From: Ceratothoa steindachneri
Taxonomy: Eukaryota; Arthropoda; Malacostraca; Isopoda; Cymothoidae
Direction: 5' to 3'
Length of the DNA stretch: 64,000 bases
Assembly (NCBI GenBank): GCA_963969495.1
Contig: OZ018322.1
Coordinates: 162,058,048 to 162,122,047, forward strand
Shown here: positions 6,039 through 50,427 of the stretch, piece by piece
How positions within the stretch are numbered: position 1 is the first letter of the stretch
Layout: each line of letters opens with the position of its first letter
Notes under the pieces: generated by a model
The model's input: only the letters and a program-made list of their open reading frames with translations
Database searches by the model: none
What the model was told of the DNA's origin: nothing
Program-made: the position numbers and the translations under genes

Positions 6039-7222
6039 TTAATTTATGGCAATAGGGTTTTCTAGAGGATTTCTACTTAAACTATTCGCTAAACAATTTT
6101 GAGTACCCTTGGTGTACACAATACGGAATTGATGTTCCATGTGCAACAGACTCCAATGCGTTAGTCGTCCAACTTGACTCTTGAAATTACGAAGGTACGA
6201 CAATGGCTTTTGATCACTCTTAATTACGAATTCGGTTCCTATAAGGTACATTCTAAAATGTCGAATTTTCCATACTATAGCTAACGCCTCAAGTTCAATG
6301 TTGGCGTAAGCCTTCTCGCATACGCAACGGGATATCTACTTCCATCGTTTTCATACTGCATGAGGGCACCACCTATACCATCACGAGAAGCATCAGTACG
6401 GATCCCACACTTTTTGTTCGGATTCGGGAGTCTCAAAATAGGAGCAGAGATCAGTTTCTCCTCCAGCATGTTAAACCAAGACACCGCGGGGTGAGTCTAA
6501 CTGATAGAATCCGGGCCCGTTTTCTTTAACATACCATTAAGGGGTGACGCTATAGTGGCGAAATTGGGAACTAAGCACCTGTAAACTGAAGCAGAAACCA
6601 GAAAATACAGCAGCTGCTTCTTCATCCGGGGAAGCGGCATTTCAGCTATGGCTTTAACTTTGTCGTTTTGGGGGGACAATTTAGTTCTTTCTGATCTTAA
6701 AACCAAGATATTTAATCACACCTTAGGCGAAATCGCACTTCGACGGGCCTATCACGAGTCCGTGTGCGCGCAAACGGATTAACAATGCGCGAAGGAGCTG
6801 TACGTGCTGGCTCCATGTCCGGATGCAACGTACACGTTGTCAAAATAAAAGGTTACACTGAGTAGGCCGTTTACAATTCGACGCATCATTCGATTGTAGT
6901 TTCCACATGCAGCTACAAAACCAAAGGGAAGACGGGTAAATTGAATAAAGCCTTTCTCTGTAGCAAAAGCTGTAAATCGCTTAGAAGATTCGGAGAGCAG
7001 AATCTGATGGTAGGCCTTACAAAGATCAAATTCGGAGATGAATTTTGCATCTTCGAAAAGATGTAGGTTTTGATCGATTAAAGGTATGGGCTCGGTATCA
7101 AACTGGGTGACTGAATTTAATTTGCGAAAATCAATGCACATCCTAAATGAGTGATCGGCCTTTCTGACCATATCCTTATTCTTCCACAGCTTATACTCTG
7201 AATGTGGCCTTTTTGTGAGCAT
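6039..7222 (-). pseudogene. Ty3/Gypsy-like pol pseudogene (RT and RNase H)
   Basis: The first open segment (7222-6779) is RT: FRMCIDFRKLNSVT, then motif A SEFDLCKAYHQI, then RLPFGFVAACGNYNRMM, then the active-site box, which reads YFDN where the family has YxDD. The second catalytic Asp is thus lost. The thumb continues at 6706-6497 in another frame (KAIAEMPLPRMKKQ, VPNFATIASPL). RNase H follows at 6484-6281 (RTDASRDGIGGALMQY, first catalytic Asp present) and 6251-6039 (KSDQKPLSYLRNF, then LANSLSRNP at the end). Frameshifts or stops separate all segments. It is about 35-50 percent alike by eye to the pol part at 45.6-46.4 kb, so it belongs to a related family. It ends after RNase H without integrase. 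Confidence 0.85.
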
Positions 7223-15639: not shown

Positions 15640-17218
15640 TACGGTGGGTTCAAATATTCCTGCGATTACTATCGGAGTTAACAGACGTCTGTTTAACTCC
15701 GACCTAAAAACGAATAAGTCCCCTGGTCCGGACGGGTTTCTCTCGAAATTGTTGAAGAAAGTGCGTGATGAGGTGGCACCACATCTGACCACAATCTTCA
15801 ACGCTTCGAGCTGGACTGGACGCGTTCCTGGAGACTGGCGTGAGGCGAAGGTGACTCCGATCTTCAAGAAAGGAGAGCAAAGCTAGCCGTCCAACTACCG
15901 ACCTATCAGTTTAACCTCGATAGTCGGTAAACTCATGAAAAGTATCATAGTGGACAATAAAACGTCATATTTGGAGTACAATCCGCTATTGAAGAGTTCC
16001 AAGCGCGGCTTTCGAAGGCACCGGTCATGCCTCACGAACCTTTGTGGAATTTTTCAACTTCATTTTCAGTGAGTATGATCGGAATAAAGTGGTGGATGTT
16101 TTCTACCTAGACTTTCAAAAAGCCTCTGACAAGGTACCACAAAGTGCGTGCCCTGGGCATAGACGAAAATGTAGCAAGTTAGATAAAGAACTGGCTAAGA
16201 GGCAGACGGCAACGGGTAGTGTTGAATGGACGAGCTTCTAAGTTGGCACCCGTAACTAGCGTTGTTCCCCAAGGTTCTGTCCTACGACCACTACTGTTCA
16301 TCATCTATGTTAATGATATAGATGGTGACGTAGTTGCGAAGATTTCTAAATTTGCTAACGATACCAAACTTGGTATGAACGTTTCAAAGGAAAGAAATAA
16401 TCCTCGGCTGCAAGGAGGTCTTCGGAAGATTGGGGAATGGTCGGACAGGTGGCAAATGCCTTTTAACGTGAACAAATGCAAAATGATGCATATCGGCCAC
16501 CAAAACCCCCACTCACCGTATATCTTTAAGAGCACTGCTCTTGAAAGCACTGATACCGAGAAAGACTTGGGTGTAACAATCACTAGTGCCCTCAAGTTCT
16601 TTAAACAGTGCATTACGGCGGGGAAAAGAGCCGAAAGGATGCTAGGGCGTATAAAGCAACAGTTTGGATATCGGAACAAGGAAATAGTACTCTGTCTGTA
16701 CAATTCACTTGTCCGACCGCACCTGGAGTATGCCGTACAATTTTGAAGTCCTTCAATTCGAAAGTACATCGTGAGATTGGAACGCGTGCAAGCCAGGGCA
16801 ACCAAACTGATTCCCTCTATCAGACATAAAAGTTATGAAGATAGATTAAGGGAATTAGATCTGTTCTCGCTGGAAACCCATAGACTGCGTATTCAGCTCA
16901 TCGAAGTTTTCAAAATACTTCGAGGGTTCGACAATGTTGATTACAGGGATATTTTCAGCCTTAATGAGAGCAGAACAATTAATCACCGCTTTAAACTTGA
17001 GTGGAAGCGTTACAACCGCGATCTGTGTGGGAAATTTTTCACGTACAGTATCTGCGGTAGCTGTAACGCAGTCTCGGTGGAGGTTATCAACAGACAATTC
17101 TGTTGACCAGTTCAAGTCAAGACTAGACAAAGTCTTGAAGCGACCGTTTCGGGAGGACGTGAGGCAATTGAGTGGGGATGTGCCCACTCGACAGCTAGCC
17201 CAAAAGTACTTTTTTTGA
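15640..17218 (+). pseudogene. CR1-like LINE reverse transcriptase, near-complete RT to C-terminus
   Basis: This is the polymerase that copies LINE RNA at the nicked target. Blocks in order: NKSPGPDGF (RT start, near 15715), GDWREAKVTPIFKKGE, NYRPISLTSIVGKLM, RGFRRHRSCLTN, DVFYLDFQKASDKVP (palm motif A, D present), VVPQGSVLRPLLFIIYVNDI, the active-site box FANDTKLG at about 16351, KCKMMHIGH, EKDLGVTI, LVRPHLEYAVQF, then the C-terminal helical part (RLRELDLFSLETHRLR) ending DQFKSRLDKVLKR at about 17150. The family has FADD, so the second catalytic Asp is changed to Asn. Several frameshifts and stops split it, including after KKGEQS. No endonuclease precedes it, so it is 5'-truncated. Confidence 0.9.
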
Positions 17219-26895: not shown

Positions 26896-27699
26896 GTACA
26901 AGGTTCTTCAGTGTGGAGATGTAGACAAGATGATAAAAAGAAGAAGACACATATGACGTCATCAGACGTGCTCATATTTCCACGGGGCATGGAGGAAGAC
27001 ATCGCATGCTTATCGAGCTATTCAAAAAGTCCGCTAACGTAACCACATGGGTTGTGGAGACATACTATTCATTCTGCCTTGAGTTCCAACGGAAGGCCAA
27101 GAAACAAGTTGTAACTATTGTGATTGTGCAACACATTGTTAGCTTTGAGTAAAACTCAAGAAGACAAGTCGACCTCATTAGCATGCAGTCACTGCCCGCC
27201 AAGAATTGCAAGTAAATCATGGTGTAACAGCATCGTCTCACCAAGCTCTGAGTGTTTCGTGCTGTTACATCTAATACAAGCAGCAGAAGTTACTCATCAC
27301 CTGATAGACATATTCTTACTGCTAGGATCACCAGTCATACTTCAGTCTGACAATGGCAATGAGTTAATCACTCACGTCATCACTGAACTGAAAGATTTGT
27401 GGCCATCCCTCAAGAAGTTATATGGAGGGCAGCGCCACTCACAGAGCCAGAGGTCAGTGTAGAGGGCCAACAGTGATATAAAAGACATGCTTACTGCCTG
27501 GCTTGCGGACAACAACACTGGAGACTGGACTGTTGGCATAAGGTTTGTACAATTCCAATAGAAATCGAGTCTATCAACGGCCACCCATACGAAGCCTTAT
27601 TTCGTTGCCCCTCTAAAATTGGCCTCACTTCCTTTCCACTTCCAGATGACATCATTGAAAGAATGAAAACAGATTAGGAGCTACTTAGGCTCGTCAACA

Positions 27700-36507: not shown

Positions 36508-37930
36508 TGTAACCCGATTACTTACTCCCCCCTCTCTTCCCTTGACTTGTTGGCCCTCAGAACGCCTCCTCCAACCACGAGAAGTATGTATCAACAGATT
36601 TCTGTGCCAGCGAGCATAAAAATACGAAAGGTAGGTGAGAAGGTGCAATAACAATGTTTAAACAGGCACTATTTCTCCTAAGATTTAGGATCTAGTTTCG
36701 GGTAATAGACGAAATTATAGGAGCTGCGACCAGAAGCCAGAATATGCTTTTAGGGCTAGGGGAAAGACGCTCGGAGAAGCGTCGTTAGAAGAGCGAGGCT
36801 TAATTTATAAGCCCTCTTCCCCCGCTTTTCCCTCCTGCCAGTGGGTTGGTGAAGTATATAGGCGGAAAACTGGAGAAGAACAGGGAGATCGGGTCAGACA
36901 TCAAAAGGACAAAGTCCGGCGGCAGGGCTCGGCACCAAGGGAATCGATCAGAACTTAAGATGAAGTTCATCGAGAGTCGGTTCCTTGTAGTCACCACGAA
37001 AAGTAGATAGAATCTTGTATCAAGGAAGATCGCGTTAGAGATCGACACGACGAAGTCCAGCGGCAGTGCCCAGCAATCAAAGGAAGGAACAGAGAAGAAT
37101 TTTATTCTGAGCCAGTTCCTGGTGGTCACACCGAAAAATTAGCCCCTTTTGTATTGAAGATCACTCTCATACTTCTCTTGTTAGAGAAACCTCTATCTCA
37201 CTTTGCAACAAAAACAAGAGATAGTCCTCGCCATTGATGAATACCCATAGTGAACTAAAGGTCGTCAAAGAATTCACTTTTTGCTCATCGCTCGTCAGTG
37301 GGAACCATCTCAAGATTAACCCGAAGATTGGAAAAAGCATCCTTCACGATCACGTTGTCTAAATCATCTGACTAAGACAAAGTGCTTAACGCCATCCGTC
37401 GCCAGTACCGAAATCACCTGTTACTCCAAATCTGCCTCCTCGTCAGAAAAACGGCTTGGCGTCTGCAAACACACCTACACGCCTAAGTGCAAACCATTTT
37501 TATCGTCTACATAAGATCCAAGGTCAAGGTCATTCTTCAGCCGGATTCGCGTGTGGTTTTTTAAAGGTAAAGAAATTCAATTATTTTTGTGTGTCAATTA
37601 GCGGCCAATATTAAAGGAGGCTTGATGGTCAACCATTACTTTATATTCATTTGGTTTAAATTAATAATTCTATTATAGACTCGTTTATTCATAGATGTAT
37701 AGTTTGTTTTGAAGATTTCACTTTTTTATTTTATAATTAAAGATATATTTATGCTTAGAAGTGTTTAACTCAATCTTCGAAACGCTGCGCAGGGCACTAG
37801 AAATACTCAAAGATAAAATAACGTAGAATAATATAGCACTCTTAAAGAAAACGTAATAAAGGAGTTATTGAAGTACGTGACTAACCTACGTGCACTACCA
37901 CTCGGCCCTTTCAATACAACGACACTAGAC
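36508..37930 (+). repeat. LTR-like repeat, copy 1
   Basis: Aligns by eye along its length with 53462-54733. The starts are TGTAACCCGATTAC versus TGTGGTCCGATACC. The middle shares GACCAGAAG, a TATATA core (about 36854) and a GAGAAACC..CTATCTCA block. The right part shares TCGAAACGCTGC and GCACTCTTA..GAAAA. The TG start, TATA core and right-end AAAATAA/AATAAAGCACTCTT signal fit an LTR in plus orientation. No internal region follows: the next bases are LINE coding. Likely a solo LTR inserted in or next to a LINE. The exact right end is uncertain. Confidence 0.6.
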
Positions 37931-38600
37931 AAACCACCAAATCAGCTAGAAAACTTTTGGCCGATAACACTCTTGGAAGTGGTTACCAAGCTATGGGACA
38001 TAGAAGATTAATCCAACACCTGGAAGAAAATGACTTGAGTCCAAAACATCAATATGGATTCAGAAAAGGAAGCGGCACAGAAACTAAACTAGTACTCCTC
38101 GTAGAGACCTTGGCCAAAGCCAAATACGATAATAAATTAACAGATTTGATATTGAAGGACGTCCAGATGGCTATTGACAAAGTGGGGATTATAGACCTGA
38201 AATTCAAAGTAAAAAGATTAGGTCTTCTCTCAATCATAAACAAATTTGAATGTGATTATATCACGGACCGAACTGCATACATATCTTTAGAAGAATACCA
38301 AGGACTAAAGTTTGAATTCAATCAGGGTGTCCTGCAAGGAGAATGCTTAAGTCCAAAACTATACACCATTTATACCAGAGATTACCCAATCCAATTTTCG
38401 ATTCCATAATGTATAAACAATTCACGTATTATATACGAGTAACCATTATAACCCATAGGCCATAGAGAGGAGAACAATAGAAATACCCTTAGGCTATAGA
38501 TAAACAAATAAAGGAAATTTCAGAACTGAAAAACCAATCGAAAGAGAATTAGAACAAATATATAGATCAGGAGAGCGAAAACCCTCGTCCGCAGGTGAAA
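37931..38600 (+). pseudogene. Jockey-like LINE RT fragment
   Basis: Starts DKPPNQLENFWPITLLEV directly after the LTR-like repeat. It then reads LIQHLEENDLSPKHQYGFRK (from 38005), AKAKYDNKLTDLILKDVQMA (motif A region, Asp present), DYITDRTAYISLEE, NQGVLQGECLSPKLYTIYTR (to about 38380). The 150-codon frame at 37957-38409 is open. The active-site FADD box and everything after it are missing or unreadable. It belongs to the same broad family as 32760-35310 but is clearly diverged from it. Confidence 0.8.
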
Positions 38601-42741: not shown

Positions 42742-42910
42742 CTTTACTGAGAAGACACGAGATAACGCCAGGAGAAAAAAAATTGAAATTCCTGGGCGGG
42801 ACTCGAACGCGGACCTGCTGATTGCCGGTCAGATGCTCTACCACTGAGCTACCAGGCACAGTGACTCTACCTCACCCAAAGCATTACCCCATCAAACCCA
42901 GTATTTCTCT
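42740..42910 (-). repeat. tRNA-headed segment S, minus orientation
   Basis: About 170 bases that recur in plus orientation at 43272-43420. Minus-strand order: leader with ATACTGGGTTTGATGGGGTA, tRNA-like head, then a tail with GGCGTTATCTCGTGTCTTCT ending at the TA run. Looks like a tRNA-derived SINE. Confidence 0.8.
42790..42857 (-). tRNA. tRNA-like head, possibly Ala (GGC)
   Basis: The A box TAGCTCAGTGG and B box GTTCGAGTCC are clear. The D arm GCTC/GAGC pairs, and the acceptor pairs five of seven. The anticodon loop CCGGCAA gives GGC but lacks U33. The T stem is one base short. More likely a SINE head than a working tRNA. Confidence 0.5.
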
Positions 42911-43187
42911 AAAGGATTGACTTCATTGTGCTGCCCTCTGCTCTCTTTGATTCTACCATCTTCTAATGTCCCTTTCTCTTACCTCTAAAAAACTCCTGTT
43001 TATTGTCTCGTTGCTCATTCACGTCCAATTTCTCTTTCTTGTACTATATTGTAATATAGTCTGCAAGGCAAGGGTTCTGCACCTTTATTTCTGTCTTCAA
43101 AATTGTTTTGAAAGGCAGAAAATAAATATGGCGAAAGCCCTGTGGTGGTTGTTATCACCCGCAGAACTTGCATTTGCTCCTTCTTCT
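42911..43187 (+). repeat. Segment U, copy 1
   Basis: About 277 bases repeated directly at 43422-43699 with about 95 percent identity by eye. Begins AAAGGATTG and ends TCCTTCTTCT. Contains AAAATAAATATGGCGAAAGC near its right end. Confidence 0.9.
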
Positions 43188-43271
43188 TTGTATGTGATAT
43201 GGGGGATGAGCCTTTAAATTGTGAGCGGCTAAGAAGATATGGTATAAAAATTCCTTGGAGGTTCCTAGCTT

Positions 43272-43420
43272 AGAGAGATACTGGGTTTGATGGGGTAACG
43301 CTTTGGGCTGAGTAGAGTCACTGTGCCTGGTAGCTCAGCGGTAGAGCATCTGACCGGCAATCGAGTCCCGGCAAGGAATTTCAAACTTTTTTCCCCTGGC
43401 GTTATCTCGTGTCTTCTCGG
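43272..43420 (+). repeat. tRNA-headed segment S, plus orientation
   Basis: Inverted copy of 42740-42910. The tRNA-like head (43325-43378) has lost about 17 bases spanning the anticodon 3' side and the start of the T arm, so the B box is broken. Confidence 0.8.
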
Positions 43421-43421
43421 T

Positions 43422-43695
43422 AAAGGATTGCCTTCATTGTGCCGCCCTCTGCTCTCTTTGATTCTAGTCTTCTTCTAATGTCCCTTTCTCTTACCTCTAA
43501 AAAACTCCTGTTTCTTGTCTCGTTGCTCATTCGCGTTCAATTTTTCTTTCTTATACTATATTGTAATATAGTCTGCAAGGCAAGGGTTCTGCACCTTTAT
43601 TTCTGTCTTCAAAATTGTTTTGAAAGGCAGAAAATAAATATGGCGAAAGCCCTGTAGTGGTTGTTATCACCCGCAGAACTTGCAGTTGCTCCTTC

Positions 43696-43699
<4 letters not shown>
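43422..43699 (+). repeat. Segment U, copy 2
   Basis: Direct repeat of 42911-43187. Here it is followed immediately by a (TA)n run. Confidence 0.9.

Positions 43700-43761
<62 letters not shown>
43698..43761. repeat. (TA)n microsatellite at the left edge of the LTR element
   Basis: TA repeat with one AAA interruption. It is both the end of the U repeat and the apparent insertion site of the LTR element. Confidence 0.95.
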
Positions 43762-43937
43762 TGTCGTAGAATGACTCCCGACGATACTATATATAACACT
43801 ATTCGTTGAGGGAACTTCCTTAATTATCTTTAGAGTGCGTTTTACTGTCTGGCGGCCGATATTATGTATCTTCAAAATGCTTAAGAAGTGGAACTGAGCT
43901 CAAGGATAATAATATTGCTATCATTAATAAAATAGAG

Positions 43938-43943
43938 TTTTAT
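43938..43943 (-). promoter_or_regulatory. Candidate polyadenylation signal in the LTR
   Basis: AATAAA on the minus strand, about 980 bases downstream of the TATA-like block. The same bases occur in the other LTR. Confidence 0.35.
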
Positions 43944-44297
43944 TAATAATAACTATAAACAAAACACAAAAACGGAAAATATTGACAAACAGAATGGAAA
44001 GGGTCGTGTAGACTCGGGCTAATCCAAGGATTTAAGGGATCAAAAAAAGGTAAAACAAATATGGAGTTAAAGAGATGGGATGGTTCGATAAACCATTTAA
44101 AGCACAGGATAGAATTGACAAATAAGGGATCAATACTCAAAAGGTGACGCTTGGCTTACGTAACTTCATTAGGGTGCAGTGGAAGGTACTTGAAGGAATA
44201 TTCGGTCCGCTGGCGAGTTCCAGCCGAAGGGGGGGGATAAAAGGATCCTGACGAGGCGTCTTGGAAAGGAGAACCGTTACTCGACGAACGGCTCGAC

Positions 44298-44735
44298 GAA
44301 CAATGGCTGTTCTACTTTGTTCTCTTCTGAACAAAGGGGGGATGAGAACCGTCTCTTGTCTACGGGCTCAAGAACAATGGCTGTTCTAATGTTGTTCTCC
44401 CTTTGAACAACAGGGGGGGTGAGAACCGTTTCTTGGCGAAGGGCTCAAAACGAACAATGGCTGTTCTAATGTTGTTCTCCTTGAACAACAGGGGGGGATG
44501 AGAACCGTTTCTTGGCGAAGGGCTCAAAACGAACAATGGCTGTTCTAGGTTGTCCTCTTCTGAACAAAGGGGGGGGGGGATGAGAACCGTCTCTTGTCTA
44601 CGGGCTCAAGAACAATGGCTGTTCTAATGTTGTTCTCCTTGAACAACAGGGGGGGTGAGAACCGTTTTTGGCAAAGGGCTCAAAACGAACAATGGCTGTT
44701 CTAATGTTGTTCTCCTTGAACAACAGGGGGGGATG
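44298..44735. repeat. LTR minisatellite, six units of 74-80 bp
   Basis: Units start GAACAATGGCTGTTCTA at 44298, 44372, 44452, 44531, 44610 and 44688. Each holds the palindromes GAACA-TGTTC and (in most) GTTGTTC-GAACAAC, a run of 6-11 G, and GAGAACCGT..CTTG. G-run length varies among units and between LTRs. Confidence 0.92.
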
Positions 44736-44920
44736 CCTTGGGGACTTGGCGTCACTAAAGGCTCGAACCTTTGGCACTCAAGGAATATTGTCCTCCTTCT
44801 GGACAAGTGATGGTGAATCTCGAGGTCGAGGTCCCTTGGCGCACAAAGGGAGAGAGGGTCGTGGTGATGTTTCGCGACGAAAATCTGGATCTCCAATCTG
44901 ATCTTAGTGGTAAAGTTTCC

Positions 44921-44930
44921 ATATAAATAG
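44921..44930 (-). promoter_or_regulatory. TATA-like block in the LTR
   Basis: ATATAAATAG on the plus strand, CTATTTATAT on the minus. The better TATA consensus is on the plus strand, antisense to the element, so the direction of any promoter is unclear. Confidence 0.25.
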
Positions 44931-45219
44931 CCAGGACATCTCCTTGGCGTGGGGGAGAATGGGGTGGAAGCTTCGAGGGAAAGCACAGCTGGGCCGGAGA
45001 AAAATGCCTTATCTGCCCATAAGCCTAACTCGATCTGGCGAGGTCGGCGTATGGGGGCGAACGGGGGGGGACGATAACCTCCTTGTTTAAACATTGGCGT
45101 CCGGTAGCTGTTGATAAGACTCCAAGCCTCGAATCGAAGATGCACGTGGGCCTCCTCGAGGTTTTAACTAATATGGGATAGGAGTTGAATTTAACACAGA
45201 TTCAACTCGTTCTATCACA

Positions 45220-45232
45220 CCCCTCCATTCCA
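45220..45232 (-). other. Polypurine tract
   Basis: The minus strand reads GGAATGGAGGGG directly before the 3' LTR start TGTGATAG. Position and composition are as expected for plus-strand priming. Confidence 0.7.
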
Positions 45233-45624
45233 GGGAAAGTTGTCACTTCGAAAAAAAAAGAGAGAAGGGACAACGATAGAGCTCCGTTGTAGGGAACTCG
45301 TTTTCTTGTACCAACCGTATCTTCCTGCACCTAACTATTATTACCTCAATACATGATTATTTTGATCCTTAGATTACAGGGGAAAATAACCTTTAATACA
45401 TCTTAATAAAAAAAAAGGCATGGAACAATGAAATGATATAAACTTAGTACATACGGGACAAAATAATTTATACGTAAATTAATAAGAACAAATATATATA
45501 CATCAAAAAAAAATTAGACATTGAGCGTTACAAAATTCAGCCATATACATTAATTAACTATATTACAAAAGAATCTTAAATTAAGTCGTACAAGACGGTA
45601 TATACCTACATGGAGATACTAATC
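45233..45624 (-). other. 3' non-coding region of the LTR element
   Basis: T-rich on the sense strand, with no ORF. An integrase would be expected here but only 390 bases separate the stop codon from the PPT. Confidence 0.75.
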
Positions 45625-47775
45625 CTATGAATACAATTGTTCTACGCTATTCCGTAACGCATTCCTACTGAGTGCGTCAGCGACCTGGTTATCGGAACCT
45701 TTGATATAATTTATTTTAAATTGATACTCTTGCAAGAGTAAACTCCAGCGCATGATGCGGCCGTTTGAGTGTCTCAAATTCCTAATATAGGCTAACGGAC
45801 GGTGGTCGGTTCCTATTTGAAAATATTTACATGTCAAGTACAGCTTGAATTTGTCTATGACCCAGATAATTGATAGAGCTATCTTTTCTCTAGTGGCATA
45901 TCTCTTTCCGCGTGGTAATAATTGACGACTAGCATATGCAACTGGATGACTCGTTCTGTCATCCACGTATTGAAGGAGTACACCTCCAATGCCCTCGTTG
46001 ATCACGTCGGTCTTAACCCAAAAGGATTTTTCCGGGTTGGGCAACTTAAAAATGGGGGCAGAAATGAACTTACTTTTGATCTGATTAAAACGGGAAACAG
46101 CGACATCATTCGAACGTAAACGATCGGGGAAATTCTTTTCCTGAAGGGGGCATAGAGGGGCCAAAATTGCAGCGAAATTCGGAACAAATCGCTGATAGGG
46201 AGAAGCTGATCCTAGGAACGATCTTAATGGCTTCTTTGTAATCGGGAGGGGCAAGTGGGCGATTGCCTTAATCTTGTTCTCGTGGGGACCTAACTTGCTT
46301 TGTCCTATTTTGAAACCCAAATATTTGATGGTTTCCTGGGCAAACTGGCATTTGCTGGGGCCAATGGTGAGGCCATTTTCACGCAGTTGCTCGAAAAGAG
46401 CTAATAGGGCGGGTAAATGGTGATTCCATTTAATTAGTTCTTGGAGCTGACTCTTCTGGCGTGGTGTCAGCTGCGCGTCACTATCCAGGTCAGAGGGTTC
46501 CAAAGACTCGCCTGGTAGGGAAGGAGGAGGGTAATCGGCATCAGGTTGGATGCACACTGTCTGGATTACCTTAAGGGACTCCGCGGGGCAATCCTCTTCA
46601 AGCGCCGATGCTTCGTCCAGTTCTACGAAGGTATCTCCATGGGTGCGTTGGGGTTTCTTTTTTTCTTGGGGTCCAGGGACAGTCTCCGTGTCCTTGTCTG
46701 GGGCCTTATCACCTAAGGGTTTTAGTGAATCACATTCCTCTTTTTCCGTCCTAAAGTCCTGGTTAGGGGTCTCCGAGAAATCGGACGGTATCGGGGTTCT
46801 GATGGGGACGGGCTCCTGGGCTTCTTTCTTATCTCGGCCTTGAGGAAGGGCGGCCTGAAACACAGGGTCGAAACTTACTTGGGGGCTCTTTCCTATAAGT
46901 ACGGAACAGAATTTTATTGGTGCTACAATGACTTCAGCCCAGCCATTATAATATTGACACTGCAGGTAACATCTAGCGACGGGGAATCTGTTCGCCCACC
47001 CAAGGTAGTCACGTACCACCGCAAATTTTTCGTGGTTAGAGGCCACTGGGAGGAGTTCGTCGGACACGATGAAGCATGTACATCCTGTGTCCCTGACGAG
47101 AGTCGATACTCGACAGCTGTCCACGCTGCCCTCCTCATATTTTAAAGTTCCCGCTGAACTTTTATCAAAAAAAAAATTTACCTGGTGGCCTGACGGATGG
47201 GGAGAAGTTTCTGCTTGGGTCTGCACCACCGGGGGAGCCGGGGTTGCATTAATCTGGTGAACTTGGTGGGCTGGTCCGCTTTTAAGCCTAGAATTTTGGG
47301 GGCAATTCCAGCTCATGTGGTTTTCTACACCACAGGTGAAGCATATGGTTGGTCGCTTCGGGAAGAGAGATGGAGGAGAGGTCTTAACGGGAGGTTTGGA
47401 GTCCCGTTGTTGGTATTGGGGAAAGAAGTTTTTGGGTTTTACGGGGCTCGGAAACTTTGTCAGCTTCCCTGGGAAGGAGCGCGAGTCCGTCCTTCTTTCT
47501 TCTCGTTGGATTACTCTTTCCCGTTCCTCTCTTTCTCTTTCTTTTTCTACCTTTTTTCTTTGAACTTCTGCTTTAATCCTAGCTAATTCAATCTGAAGCT
47601 CAGCTTGTCTTATCCGTTCCTCTCTTTCTCTTTCTTCTCGTTGTATTTCTTTTTCTCTTCTTTGCTCCTCTTGAATGTACTCAATTAGTTCTTTTCCGGA
47701 AAGTCCACAGGACTCTCCTTGCGCTTTAAAGATTTCGAACGGAGTCATCTTTGCACTTGGGGGCGCACTAGTCAA
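45625..47775 (-). CDS. Fused gag-pol remnant of the LTR element: coiled coil, zinc knuckle, protease, RT thumb, RNase H
   Basis: Uninterrupted 716 codons. Residues 30-95 are a charged Glu/Arg coiled coil. Residues 145-158 are a CCHC knuckle (CFTCGVENHMSWNC). Residues 229-231 are DTG, the retropepsin active site. Residues 320-440 are an acidic, Pro-rich linker. At 449 the sequence jumps from LTPRQKSQLQELIK to WNHHLPALLALFEQL, the segment that normally follows the RT YxDD box. The RT fingers and palm, about 190 residues, are therefore absent. The thumb follows (IGPSKCQF, YLGFKIG, VPNFAAILAPL), then RNase H with its acidic residues at D590, E630, D657 and D700. Capsid, expected between about residues 95 and 115, is also absent. 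The protein ends ADALSRN plus 11 residues, without integrase. The Met at 47775 is the first in frame; Met10 is an alternative. Confidence 0.88.
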   Translation of the reverse strand: MTSAPPSAKMTPFEIFKAQGESCGLSGKELIEYIQEEQRREKEIQREEREREERIRQAELQIELARIKAEVQRKKVEKEREREERERVIQREERRTDSRSFPGKLTKFPSPVKPKNFFPQYQQRDSKPPVKTSPPSLFPKRPTICFTCGVENHMSWNCPQNSRLKSGPAHQVHQINATPAPPVVQTQAETSPHPSGHQVNFFFDKSSAGTLKYEEGSVDSCRVSTLVRDTGCTCFIVSDELLPVASNHEKFAVVRDYLGWANRFPVARCYLQCQYYNGWAEVIVAPIKFCSVLIGKSPQVSFDPVFQAALPQGRDKKEAQEPVPIRTPIPSDFSETPNQDFRTEKEECDSLKPLGDKAPDKDTETVPGPQEKKKPQRTHGDTFVELDEASALEEDCPAESLKVIQTVCIQPDADYPPPSLPGESLEPSDLDSDAQLTPRQKSQLQELIKWNHHLPALLALFEQLRENGLTIGPSKCQFAQETIKYLGFKIGQSKLGPHENKIKAIAHLPLPITKKPLRSFLGSASPYQRFVPNFAAILAPLCPLQEKNFPDRLRSNDVAVSRFNQIKSKFISAPIFKLPNPEKSFWVKTDVINEGIGGVLLQYVDDRTSHPVAYASRQLLPRGKRYATREKIALSIIWVIDKFKLYLTCKYFQIGTDHRPLAYIRNLRHSNGRIMRWSLLLQEYQFKINYIKGSDNQVADALSRNALRNSVEQLYS

Positions 47776-48083
47776 CCAACTAAAATTCCTCGCAACAAGA
47801 ATTATGCCTCTATAGAATTAGCCTACCTAAATATGGGCACTGACCTATTCGTACTTGGTTTCTCAATCTAAATAACCACTGACTAAAATCACAAAAAAAA
47901 AAAAACAAATTATTATAACCGTTCCTTGAGCTACTCCAGCTTCTTAAGTTTAAAAAAAAAAGGGGATAGCAATCGTTAAAACGAAAGGGAACTACTATAT
48001 TCTATTATTATAACGAATAACACTATGCTTTACTCGACTGAGACCAGTGTTTGCAAAGATATAGCGTTAAACCTTACACACCT

Positions 48084-48093
48084 GATACCAAAT
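48084..48093 (-). other. Candidate primer-binding site
   Basis: The minus strand reads TGGTATCAGG about 20 bases inside the 5' LTR edge, after a TA-rich stretch. The TGG start and resemblance to initiator-Met-type sites are suggestive, but the offset is larger than usual. Confidence 0.3.
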
Positions 48094-48112
48094 TAAATAG
48101 TATATATATATA

Positions 48113-49569
48113 TGTCGTAGAATGACTCCCGACGATACTATATATAACACTATTCGTTGAGGGAACTTCCTTAATTATCTTTAGAGTGCGTTTTACTGTC
48201 TGGCGGCCGATATTATGTATCTTCAAAATGCTTAAGAAGTGGAACTGAGCTCAAGGATAATAATATTGCTATCATTAATAAAATAGAGTTTTATTAATAA
48301 TAACTATAAACAAAACACAAAAACGGAAAATATTGACAAACAGAATGGAAAGGGTCGTGTAGACTCGGGCTAATCCAAGGATTTAAGGGATCAAAAAAAG
48401 GTAAAACAAATATGGAGTTAAAGAGATGGGATGGTTCGATAAACCATTTAAAGCACAGGATAGAATTGACAAATAAGGGATCAATACTCAAAAGGTGACG
48501 CTTGGCTTACGTAACTTCATTAGGGTGCAGTGGAAGGTACTTGAAGGAATATTCGGTCCGCTGGCGAGTTCCAGCCGAAGGGGGGGGATAAAAGGATCCT
48601 GACGAGGCGTCTTGGAAAGGAGAACCGTTACTCGACGAACGGCTCGACGAACAATGGCTGTTCTACTTTGTTCTCTTCTGAACAAAGGGGGGATGAGAAC
48701 CGTCTCTTGTCTACGGGCTCAAGAACAATGGCTGTTCTAATGTTGTTCTCCCTTTGAACAACAGGGGGGGGTGAGAACCGTTTCTTGGCGAAGGGCTCAA
48801 AACGAACAATGGCTGTTCTAATGTTGTTCTCCTTGAACAACAGGGGGGGATGAGAACCGTTTCTTGGCGAAGGGCTCAAAACGAACAATGGCTGTTCTAG
48901 GTTGTCCTCTTCTGAACAAAGGGGGGTGATGAGAACCGTCTCTTGTCTACGGGCTCAAGAACAATGGCTGTTCTAATGTTGTTCTCCTTGAACACCGGGG
49001 GGGGTGAGAACCGTTTCTTGGCGAAGGGCTCAAAACGAACAATGGCTGTTCTAATGTTGTTCTCCTTGAACAACAGGGGGGGGATGCCTTGGGGACTTGG
49101 CGTCACTAAAGGCTCGAACCTTTGGCACTCAAGGAATATTGTCCTCCTTCTGGACAAGTGATGGTGAATCTCGAGGTCGAGGTCTCTTGGCGCACAAAGG
49201 GAGAGAGGGTCGTGGTGATGTTTCGCGACGAAAATCTGGATCTCCAATCTGATCTTAGTGGTAAAGTTTCCATATAAATAGCCAGGACATCTCCTTGGTG
49301 TGGGGGAGAATGGGGTGGAAGCTTCGAGGGAACGCACAGCTGGGCCGGAGAAAAATGCCTTATCTGTCCATAAGCCTAACTCGATCTGGCGAGGTCGGCG
49401 TATGGGGGCGAACGGGGGGGACGATAACCTCCTTGCTTAAACATTGGCGTCCGGTAGCTGTTGATAAGACTCCAAGCCTCGAATCGAAGATGCACGTGGG
49501 CCTCCTCGAGGTTTTAACTAATATGGGATAGGAGTTGAATTTAACACAGATTCAACTCGTTCTATCACA
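48113..49569 (-). repeat. 5' LTR
   Basis: 1457 bp, same structure as the 3' LTR. The minisatellite is at 48649-49085. Differences from the 3' LTR include C/T at about 49184, T/C in the CTCCTTGG(T/C)GTG block, and G-run lengths. Confidence 0.92.
48649..49085. repeat. LTR minisatellite, second copy
   Basis: Same six-unit array as 44298-44735. Unit 4 has GGGGGGTGATGAG where the other LTR has an 11-G run, and unit 5 has CACCGGGG where the other has CAACAGG. Confidence 0.92.
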
Positions 49570-49571
49570 TA

Positions 49572-49651
<80 letters not shown>
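49570..49651. repeat. (TA)n microsatellite at the right edge of the LTR element
   Basis: Nearly pure TA repeat, about 80 bases, beginning TATATTTATATAT directly after the LTR end. Confidence 0.95.
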
Positions 49652-49777: not shown

Positions 49778-50427
49778 GCCTAAAATACAAATAAACGAAA
49801 CAAAATATTTTGCACTGTTATGAAAGCACACTGCTAAATGTACATCTAGAACTTTACTAGCTAGTATTAGCTTTGAATTGTAAATTTAGGTTAGAGGGAA
49901 TATTTCGAAATGGGGCTCAAATTTACAATAAAGAGACGAGGGGAGGATTTTAAATATTTAAATTAGTTAGCGAGTGTATAAATGCTTAAATCTATTAAGG
50001 TAGGGAAGATTTGATTTATGAATCTAATGATTATATAAAACTCTTTTAAAATAAATTTTAAACGAATAATTGAAGGCAAAATTGGCAAAACCTAATATAC
50101 AAGATCACAAACCTTGCCAATGAGCGTGTTACGTGTTGCGGCCGACCCAAAAGCACCAAAACCGTCCTATATAATCATTAGATTCATAAATCAAATCTTC
50201 CCTCCCTTAATAGATTTTAGCAATTATACACTCGCTAACTTATTTAAATATTTAAAATCCTTCCCTCGTCTCTCTATTGTAAATTTGAGCCCCATTTCGA
50301 AATATTCCCTTTAACCTAATTTTGCAATTCAAAGCTAATACTAGCTAGTAAAGTTCTAGATGTACATTTAGCAGTGTGCTTTCATAACAGTGCAAAATAT
50401 TTTGTTTCGTTTATTTGTATTTTAGGC
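49778..50427. repeat. Foldback element with 260-bp inverted arms
   Basis: The left arm 49778-50037 and right arm 50168-50427 are reverse complements with about ten mismatches in 260 bases. The arms start GCCTAAAATACAAATAAACG and end in its complement. The 130-bp loop holds a perfect nested 8-bp stem, ATTGGCAA and TTGCCAAT. No ORF longer than 66 codons (50114-50314, in the right arm). A transcript would form a long hairpin. No target duplication is visible. Could be a MITE/foldback transposon or an inverted duplication. Confidence 0.92.

What the first reader, a model, noticed from the sequence alone, without database searches (positions are those of the whole stretch)
45220..48112. Young LTR retrotransposon whose ORF stays open despite clean loss of capsid, RT palm and integrase
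Seen: LTRs nearly identical, and one 716-codon frame with coiled coil, CCHC knuckle, DTG protease, RT thumb and complete RNase H acidic residues. The RT jumps in frame from the pre-finger segment (QELI) straight to the post-YxDD segment (WNHHLPAL). Known: full Gypsy elements carry about 190 residues there, plus capsid and integrase. Inference: this is not random decay, because decay would break the frame. Either the in-frame deletions arose in one recent template switch, or a non-autonomous lineage amplifies while keeping a protein with protease, nucleic-acid binding and RNase H. Such a product could compete with or parasitise a full-length partner.
Basis: partly seen in the sequence, partly recalled or inferred. 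Interest (0 to 1): 0.78.

Follow-up and report, generated by a model that had tools for sequence, protein, structure and literature searches.

The report
Amplified non-autonomous Gmr1-like Gypsy retrotransposon family
This is one copy of a large, recently active family of internally deleted jumping genes that carry a shortened protein frame but lack key replication enzymes, so they probably spread with enzymes made by full-length relatives in the same genome.

Summary
In detail: near-identical LTRs (9 substitutions in 1,454 compared bases) flank one open frame with coiled coil, zinc knuckle, protease and RNase H, but no capsid, RT palm or integrase. Corrections: the element is 43762-49569, and integrase is missing from BETWEEN protease and RT, as the nearest full polyproteins have Gmr1-like order (Gag-PR-IN-RT-RH).

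It is an amplified family: all 40 scored hits to the RT junction (window included; 988 candidates) match at 99-100%. The 39 further copies fetched share the internal structure; 27 of 37 measured elements have exact 5-bp target duplications (3 of these in uninformative TA repeats).

The frame is not clearly selected: pN/pS 0.91 (0.69-1.17), stops are shared between copies, and about four fifths of the divergence predates insertion. Gag-PR (0.68, 0.44-1.10) may be weakly constrained.

RT cores related to the best full-length relative lie in frames of 1,300 aa or more at 15 of 150 scored places (domain order unread). One locus, known by coordinates only, joins a 99%-identical protease at the same 418-nt spacing to an RT core, so palm loss looks separable from integrase loss. 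Closest analogue: mouse IAP 1-delta-1. The partner was not proven.

The parts
48113..49569 (-). 5' LTR (element reads on the minus strand), TGTG...GACA; contains a ~78-bp tandem array
43762..45219 (-). 3' LTR, 9 substitutions from the 5' LTR
43757..43761 (.). possible 5-bp target duplication ATATA, mate at 49570-49574; uninformative here because both flanks are (TA)n
48077..48090 (-). primer binding site candidate TGGTATCAGGTGTG, 22 nt inside the 5' LTR; exact in 37 of 40 copies, one base off in L009 and L033, not reached in L017 (tRNA-Leu-like: recalled)
45220..45231 (-). polypurine tract GGAATGGAGGGG directly before the 3' LTR
45625..47748 (-). fused Gag-Pol frame from ATG, 707 codons
47482..47694 (-). 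coiled coil of Gag, repeat-rich, length varies between copies, nearly always in steps of three bases
47480..47500 (-). approximate scar of the capsid (SCAN-type) deletion, about 180 aa missing (estimate)
47302..47343 (-). CCHC zinc knuckle
46894..47184 (-). aspartic protease domain, RDTGC
46465..46869 (-). disordered linker holding the integrase-deletion scar (about 410 aa missing, estimate)
46428..46434 (-). RT junction: fingers/palm incl. catalytic motif missing (about 190 aa, estimate)
46024..46430 (-). RT thumb/connection remnant
45661..46023 (-). RNase H domain with its four acidic residues

Best explanation
A non-autonomous family of a Gmr1-like Ty3/Gypsy element. Shown: compared with full-length relatives, capsid, integrase and RT palm are gone in frame, and the shortened 5.8-kb element multiplied to many dispersed copies, recently. 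Inferred: its RNA keeps LTR promoter, primer site, polypurine tract and packaging signals, enters particles made by full-length Gmr1-like elements of the same genome, and is reverse transcribed and integrated by their enzymes. Shown: the remaining frame drifts at close to the neutral rate; it is mainly inherited baggage, although a weak role of the Gag-protease half in cis is not excluded.
For: Junction in 40 of 40 scored places (window included) at 99-100%. A linker query matched all 40 scored places full length. 39 fetched copies share the internal structure, mean pairwise identity 96.7%. LTR divergence median 0.6% and 5-bp duplications in 27 of 37 show separate recent insertions. None of the 148 scored RNase H copies has a frame over 801 aa. 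15 of 150 scored RT-core hits to P0008 lie in frames of 1,300 aa or more. Four gametes in 4492 of 7626 site pairs, as recombination between co-packaged RNAs would give; gene conversion or recurrent change would too. pN/pS 0.91; N:S of single variants 244:90, of shared ones 112:46, p 0.67.
Against: Three in-frame deletions are a roughly 1 in 27 coincidence if frame never mattered. Gag-PR pN/pS is 0.68 (0.44-1.10), and length changes in the coil keep frame with one exception.
Confidence: 0.82

Rival explanations
1. The fused protein is a working cis factor, as reported for mouse IAP 1-delta-1: coiled coil, zinc knuckle and protease help the element's own RNA into the partner's particles, so the N-terminal half is kept while RNase H drifts.
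For: Gag-PR pN/pS 0.68 against 1.05 for thumb+RH; coil length changes nearly always in threes; the IAP precedent.
Against: Interval of Gag-PR includes 1 (0.44-1.10) and singleton versus shared N:S does not differ there (p 0.16). Frameshifts at nt 575-763 (protease) in 12 of 39 copies, several in an A-run where assembly error is possible. Coil DNA is made of 6- and 15-base repeats, so in-frame slippage needs no selection.
Confidence: 0.2
2. The protein acts in trans as an inhibitor or parasite of the full-length partner.
For: Domains that could interact are retained; long-frame relatives coexist.
Against: No capsid to co-assemble; no sign of constraint on RNase H (pN/pS 1.16, 0.71-2.02); a trans benefit shared with broken copies is hard to select for (reasoning).
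Confidence: 0.05
3. One event (a single template switch or multiply spliced genomic RNA copied back) removed all three segments at once.
For: All 39 fetched copies share all three losses.
Against: Locus C14:45.71 Mb has 99% identical protease, the same 418-nt spacing to RT (so no integrase) and an RT core in one 899-aa frame. It was not read and may be a recombinant, so this is not final.
Confidence: 0.12
4. Assembly collapse or artefact.
For: None beyond the repetitive nature.
Against: Different chromosomes, different target duplications, different LTR pairs.
Confidence: 0.01

Closest known systems
Gmr1-like Ty3/Gypsy elements (decapod examples GyRex4, Gychoro2, GyMaja1, GyLiva4; PMC3587641, passages seen)
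   Same: Most of the nearest full-length proteins have integrase upstream of RT and end after RNase H
   Different: This family has lost integrase, capsid and RT palm
Mouse IAP 1-delta-1 (PMC7411935, PMC6466679, passages seen)
   Same: Internal deletion makes one in-frame Gag-Pol fusion; amplified; needs full-length elements in trans (here inferred)
   Different: Unrelated retroelement; there one 1.9-kb deletion, here capsid, integrase and RT palm; cis function reported there, not shown here
TR-GAG elements of plants (PMC8704663, passages seen)
   Same: Non-autonomous LTR element with one frame, moving in the absence of most element proteins
   Different: TR-GAG keeps a Gag frame only; here capsid is gone and protease and RNase H remain
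BARE-2, LARD, TRIM (recalled; BARE1/BARE2 named in a passage of PMC8704663)
   Same: Non-autonomous LTR elements thought to be mobilised in trans
   Different: Gag-start defect or non-coding interior; here a long fused frame

Membership tests
LTR retrotransposon | Paired LTRs TG..CA, PPT, PBS candidate, target duplication | tested here: met
Gmr1-like Ty3/Gypsy | Integrase upstream of RT | tested here: inconclusive
   Integrase absent in this family. Of 13 relatives scanned by motif 9 have integrase before RT or RNase H (P0008, P0012, P0014-P0017, P0020, P0022, P0024), 2 the conventional order (P0021, P0023), 2 no integrase motif hit (P0009, P0018; P0018 aligns as integrase-first)
Gmr1-like Ty3/Gypsy | RT-RNase H places in the Gmr1 clade | tested here: inconclusive
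   Best hit P0008; no tree with named Gmr1 elements was built
Gmr1-like Ty3/Gypsy | Frame ends directly after RNase H | tested here: met
Non-autonomous LTR retrotransposon | Lacks enzymes for its own replication yet has amplified | tested here: met
Non-autonomous LTR retrotransposon | Identified autonomous partner with shared cis signals | tested here: inconclusive
IAP 1-delta-1-like fusion | In-frame Gag-Pol fusion by internal deletion | tested here: met
IAP 1-delta-1-like fusion | Fusion protein helps in cis | not testable with these tools
   Only indirect: pN/pS
TR-GAG | Single frame encoding Gag only | tested here: not met
   capsid absent, protease and RNase H present
LARD | Non-coding interior (definition recalled) | tested here: not met
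   707-codon frame

The most novel reading that the evidence does not exclude
A palm-less, capsid-less Gag-protease-RNase H fusion serves its own RNA in cis (coiled coil and zinc knuckle bind it into a partner's particle, protease separates them), making this an independent Gypsy counterpart of IAP 1-delta-1, reached stepwise through an RT-bearing intermediate still present in the genome.
Probability: 0.18. Interest if true: 0.6.

Novelty: new variant of a known kind. Interest (0 to 1): 0.42.

Why it matters
It is a clear case of a deleted Gypsy element with a fused coding frame that became numerous in what is probably an animal genome. In the listings of nine searches of the open library (titles, abstract starts and some passages seen, not whole papers) I saw no non-autonomous Gmr1-like family. 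With many young copies it allows a direct test of whether such fusions help themselves in cis, and one palm-bearing locus may show the order of the losses. It also warns that an open frame in a young copy is not evidence of selection.

Tried and rejected
Splicing as origin of the deletions: not testable without the parent sequence; the RT scar (..AAGAACTAATT|AAATGG) is not a typical exon junction (by eye). Viral contigs: 6 pattern matches, none a relative. First protein search was length-limited, hence the padded query. The second Gmr1-like fragment in the window (6051-7171) is 47-61% identical in protein to this frame, so not the parent. Trees of copies carry conflicting signal, so frequency classes were used instead of branches. 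Rows dropped before counts: L019, L048, L035 (near-identical mates of L018, L047, L036), codons 26-80 (repeat-rich coil) and, codons from 704 on; one search kept codon 704. L022 was a partial duplicate of L048's locus and unused.

Full report
What is there. The minus strand of 43762-49569 is a complete LTR retrotransposon: LTRs of 1,457 and 1,458 bases ending TG..CA, polypurine tract at 45220-45231, a primer-site candidate at 48077-48090 (exact in 37 of 40 copies), and one frame with ATG at 47748 and stop at 45625. The LTRs differ by 9 substitutions and 7 gap columns. Pfam sees RNase H; the end of RT and the zinc knuckle score below their cut-offs.

What is missing, and from where. The protein search with length limit 394-1253 aa gave 6 hits. 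Among them P0002 and P0003 are SCAN-type Gag with protease followed directly by integrase; P0004, from the mantis shrimp Oratosquilla oratoria, is SCAN Gag plus protease. The padded search gave 145 hits, 120 listed; the best, P0008 (1,414 aa), has protease at 344, integrase motif at 624, RT motif at 1116, RNase H at 1299 and ends right after it. Of 13 relatives scanned by motif, 9 have integrase before RT or RNase H, 2 (P0021, P0023) the conventional order, 2 no integrase motif hit. Integrase-first is the pol order of Gmr1-like elements, described in decapods (PMC3587641, passages). Thus integrase was lost between protease and RT and nothing is missing downstream of RNase H. Aligned to P0008, about 180 aa (capsid), 410 aa (integrase) and 190 aa (RT fingers and palm) are gone, each in frame (estimates by eye from the alignment). 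The four RNase H acidic residues remain. The AF2 model has mean pLDDT 61 and pTM 0.30; coil, protease and RNase H are its better parts. Foldseek returns RT and RNase H structures, no separate protease among the 50 rows shown.

Copies. The genome holding the window is 3.93 Gb. A 171-base query over the RT scar matched all 40 scored places, window included, at 99-100% over 169-171 bases (988 candidates). A 241-base query in the linker matched all 40 scored places full length, window included (1,195 candidates); 5 of the 39 others were fetched. The 39 non-window places were fetched in 40 stretches (L022 a partial duplicate, unused); all share the internal organisation, and the 40 copies are 92.8-100% identical, mean 96.7%. 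Both LTRs could be measured in 37 of 40 elements, window included: divergence median 0.62%, range 0.07-2.1%; 27 of 37 have exact 5-bp duplications. Of these 27, three (window, L031, L045) lie in TA repeats and two (L018, L019) are one duplicated insertion; the 10 without include tandem mates (L034, L047, L048) and imprecise or mutated ends.

Is the frame kept? Stop-to-stop frames of 700 aa or more: 10 of 40 copies, one of which (L028) stops early at codon 688, 3 of 5 further ones, and 40 of 148 in the RNase H search without a stop inside the hit. Outside the coil 25 of 27 indels shift the frame, most private to a copy or in base runs. Inside the coil changes are multiples of three except a 1-base loss in L035 (in L017 only as a net change); the coil DNA consists of 6- and 15-base repeats. 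Copy-to-copy divergence (3.3%) is about five times the LTR divergence (0.6%), so roughly four fifths of it arose before the present insertions, while the family was replicating (own estimate). Even so pN/pS is 0.91 (0.69-1.17); Gag-PR 0.68 (0.44-1.10), linker 1.28 (0.68-2.94), thumb+RH 1.05 (0.75-1.55), RNase H 1.16 (0.71-2.02) (42 copies). N:S is 244:90 for single and 112:46 for shared variants (p 0.67). An earlier count on 37 copies gave 237:77 and 98:44, p 0.17. The 155 bases after the stop differ by 2.0%, less than the non-synonymous sites of the frame (2.7%). Stops shared between copies: codon 704 in 13 of 40 (harmless, at the end), 681 in 4, and 303, 593 and 688 in 2 each; codon 165 only in a tandem pair. 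In the RNase H search 44 of 148 hits contain a TAG, 7 a TGA, 1 a TAA, so one TAG is probably common (inference). Most simply, truncated copies have been reverse transcribed and integrated too; recurrent mutation or gene conversion is not excluded. The frame is mostly inherited and drifting; a weak constraint on the N-terminal half is neither shown nor excluded.

Partner. With the RT core of P0008, 150 of 38,939 candidates were scored, 49-54% identical; of the 136 without a stop inside the hit 15 have frames of 1,300 aa or more. By similarity and length I take these for complete Gmr1-like polyproteins; their domain order was not read. The 148 scored RNase H copies (93-100%; 64,580 candidates) include none over 801 aa, so a full-length sister with the same RNase H is absent from that capped list, which is no proof of absence. 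Among 150 scored protease hits (97-100%; 35,560 candidates) all but one lie in frames of 799 aa or less. The exception, C14:45711444-45711710, has 99% identical protease in an 899-aa frame and is also an RT-core hit (C14:45710427-45711026), with the bit score 226.8 that hits in frames of 1,386, 1,391 and 1,460 aa also have. Its protease-to-RT distance, 418 nt, equals that in the window if query residue 7 is matched to S442 by eye, so it lacks integrase with the same linker length; by frame length it lacks capsid too (inference). It is an intermediate, or a recombinant between the deleted family and a full-length one; its RNase H is not among the 148 scored. Either way palm loss looks separable from integrase loss.

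Mechanism. Shown: amplification as LTR element with target duplications; missing capsid, polymerase and integrase; coexistence with long-frame relatives; four gametes in 4492 of 7626 site pairs. Inferred: packaging into particles of a full-length Gmr1-like element and mobilisation in trans. What it works like: mouse IAP 1-delta-1, a deleted element with an in-frame Gag-Pol fusion that needs full-length copies and whose fusion protein is reported to help in cis (PMC7411935 and PMC6466679, passages). It is not a member of that family. TR-GAG elements (PMC8704663, passages) are the plant parallel; amplification of defective elements with help from others is also noted for plant Retand (PMC11963269, passages).

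Limits. 45 copies were read, window included, chosen as best matches to the window, which biases towards close relatives. The host species was not identified; a crustacean is a guess from the nearest named hit and the literature.

Noticed in passing
window 6051-7171 (-): A second, frame-broken Gmr1-like RT/RNase H fragment that keeps the RT palm, 47-61% identical in protein to this frame.
   Followed up: partly
window 44269-44735 and 48620-49086: Both LTRs contain a tandem array of ~75-80-bp units; LTR length differs between copies (about 1,220-1,780 bases).
   Followed up: partly
G000:C9:170005799-170014344; C6:42718029-42741420; L035/L036; L047/L048: Neighbouring copies spaced about 4.1-4.4 kb, as if LTR-internal units were repeated in tandem, likely by LTR recombination.
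   Followed up: no
L018 and L019 (C17, 5 Mb apart): Two nearly identical copies with the same flanks and target duplication: a duplicated chromosome segment or an assembly duplicate.
   Followed up: no
window 49778-50047 and 50158-50427: 270-base inverted repeat, 95% complementary, 110 bases apart, just outside the element.
   Followed up: no
window 42905-43200 and 43414-43711: About 300-base direct duplication, 94% identical, next to the element.
   Followed up: no
window 16183-16746 and 37885-38409: Open stretches that look by eye like non-LTR reverse transcriptase fragments.
   Followed up: no
window 27274-27555: Weak integrase-like match to P0022.
   Followed up: no
element leader 48091-48112: A (TA)n run of varying length lies between LTR end and primer site in the copies; an unusual distance for a primer site.
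   Followed up: partly
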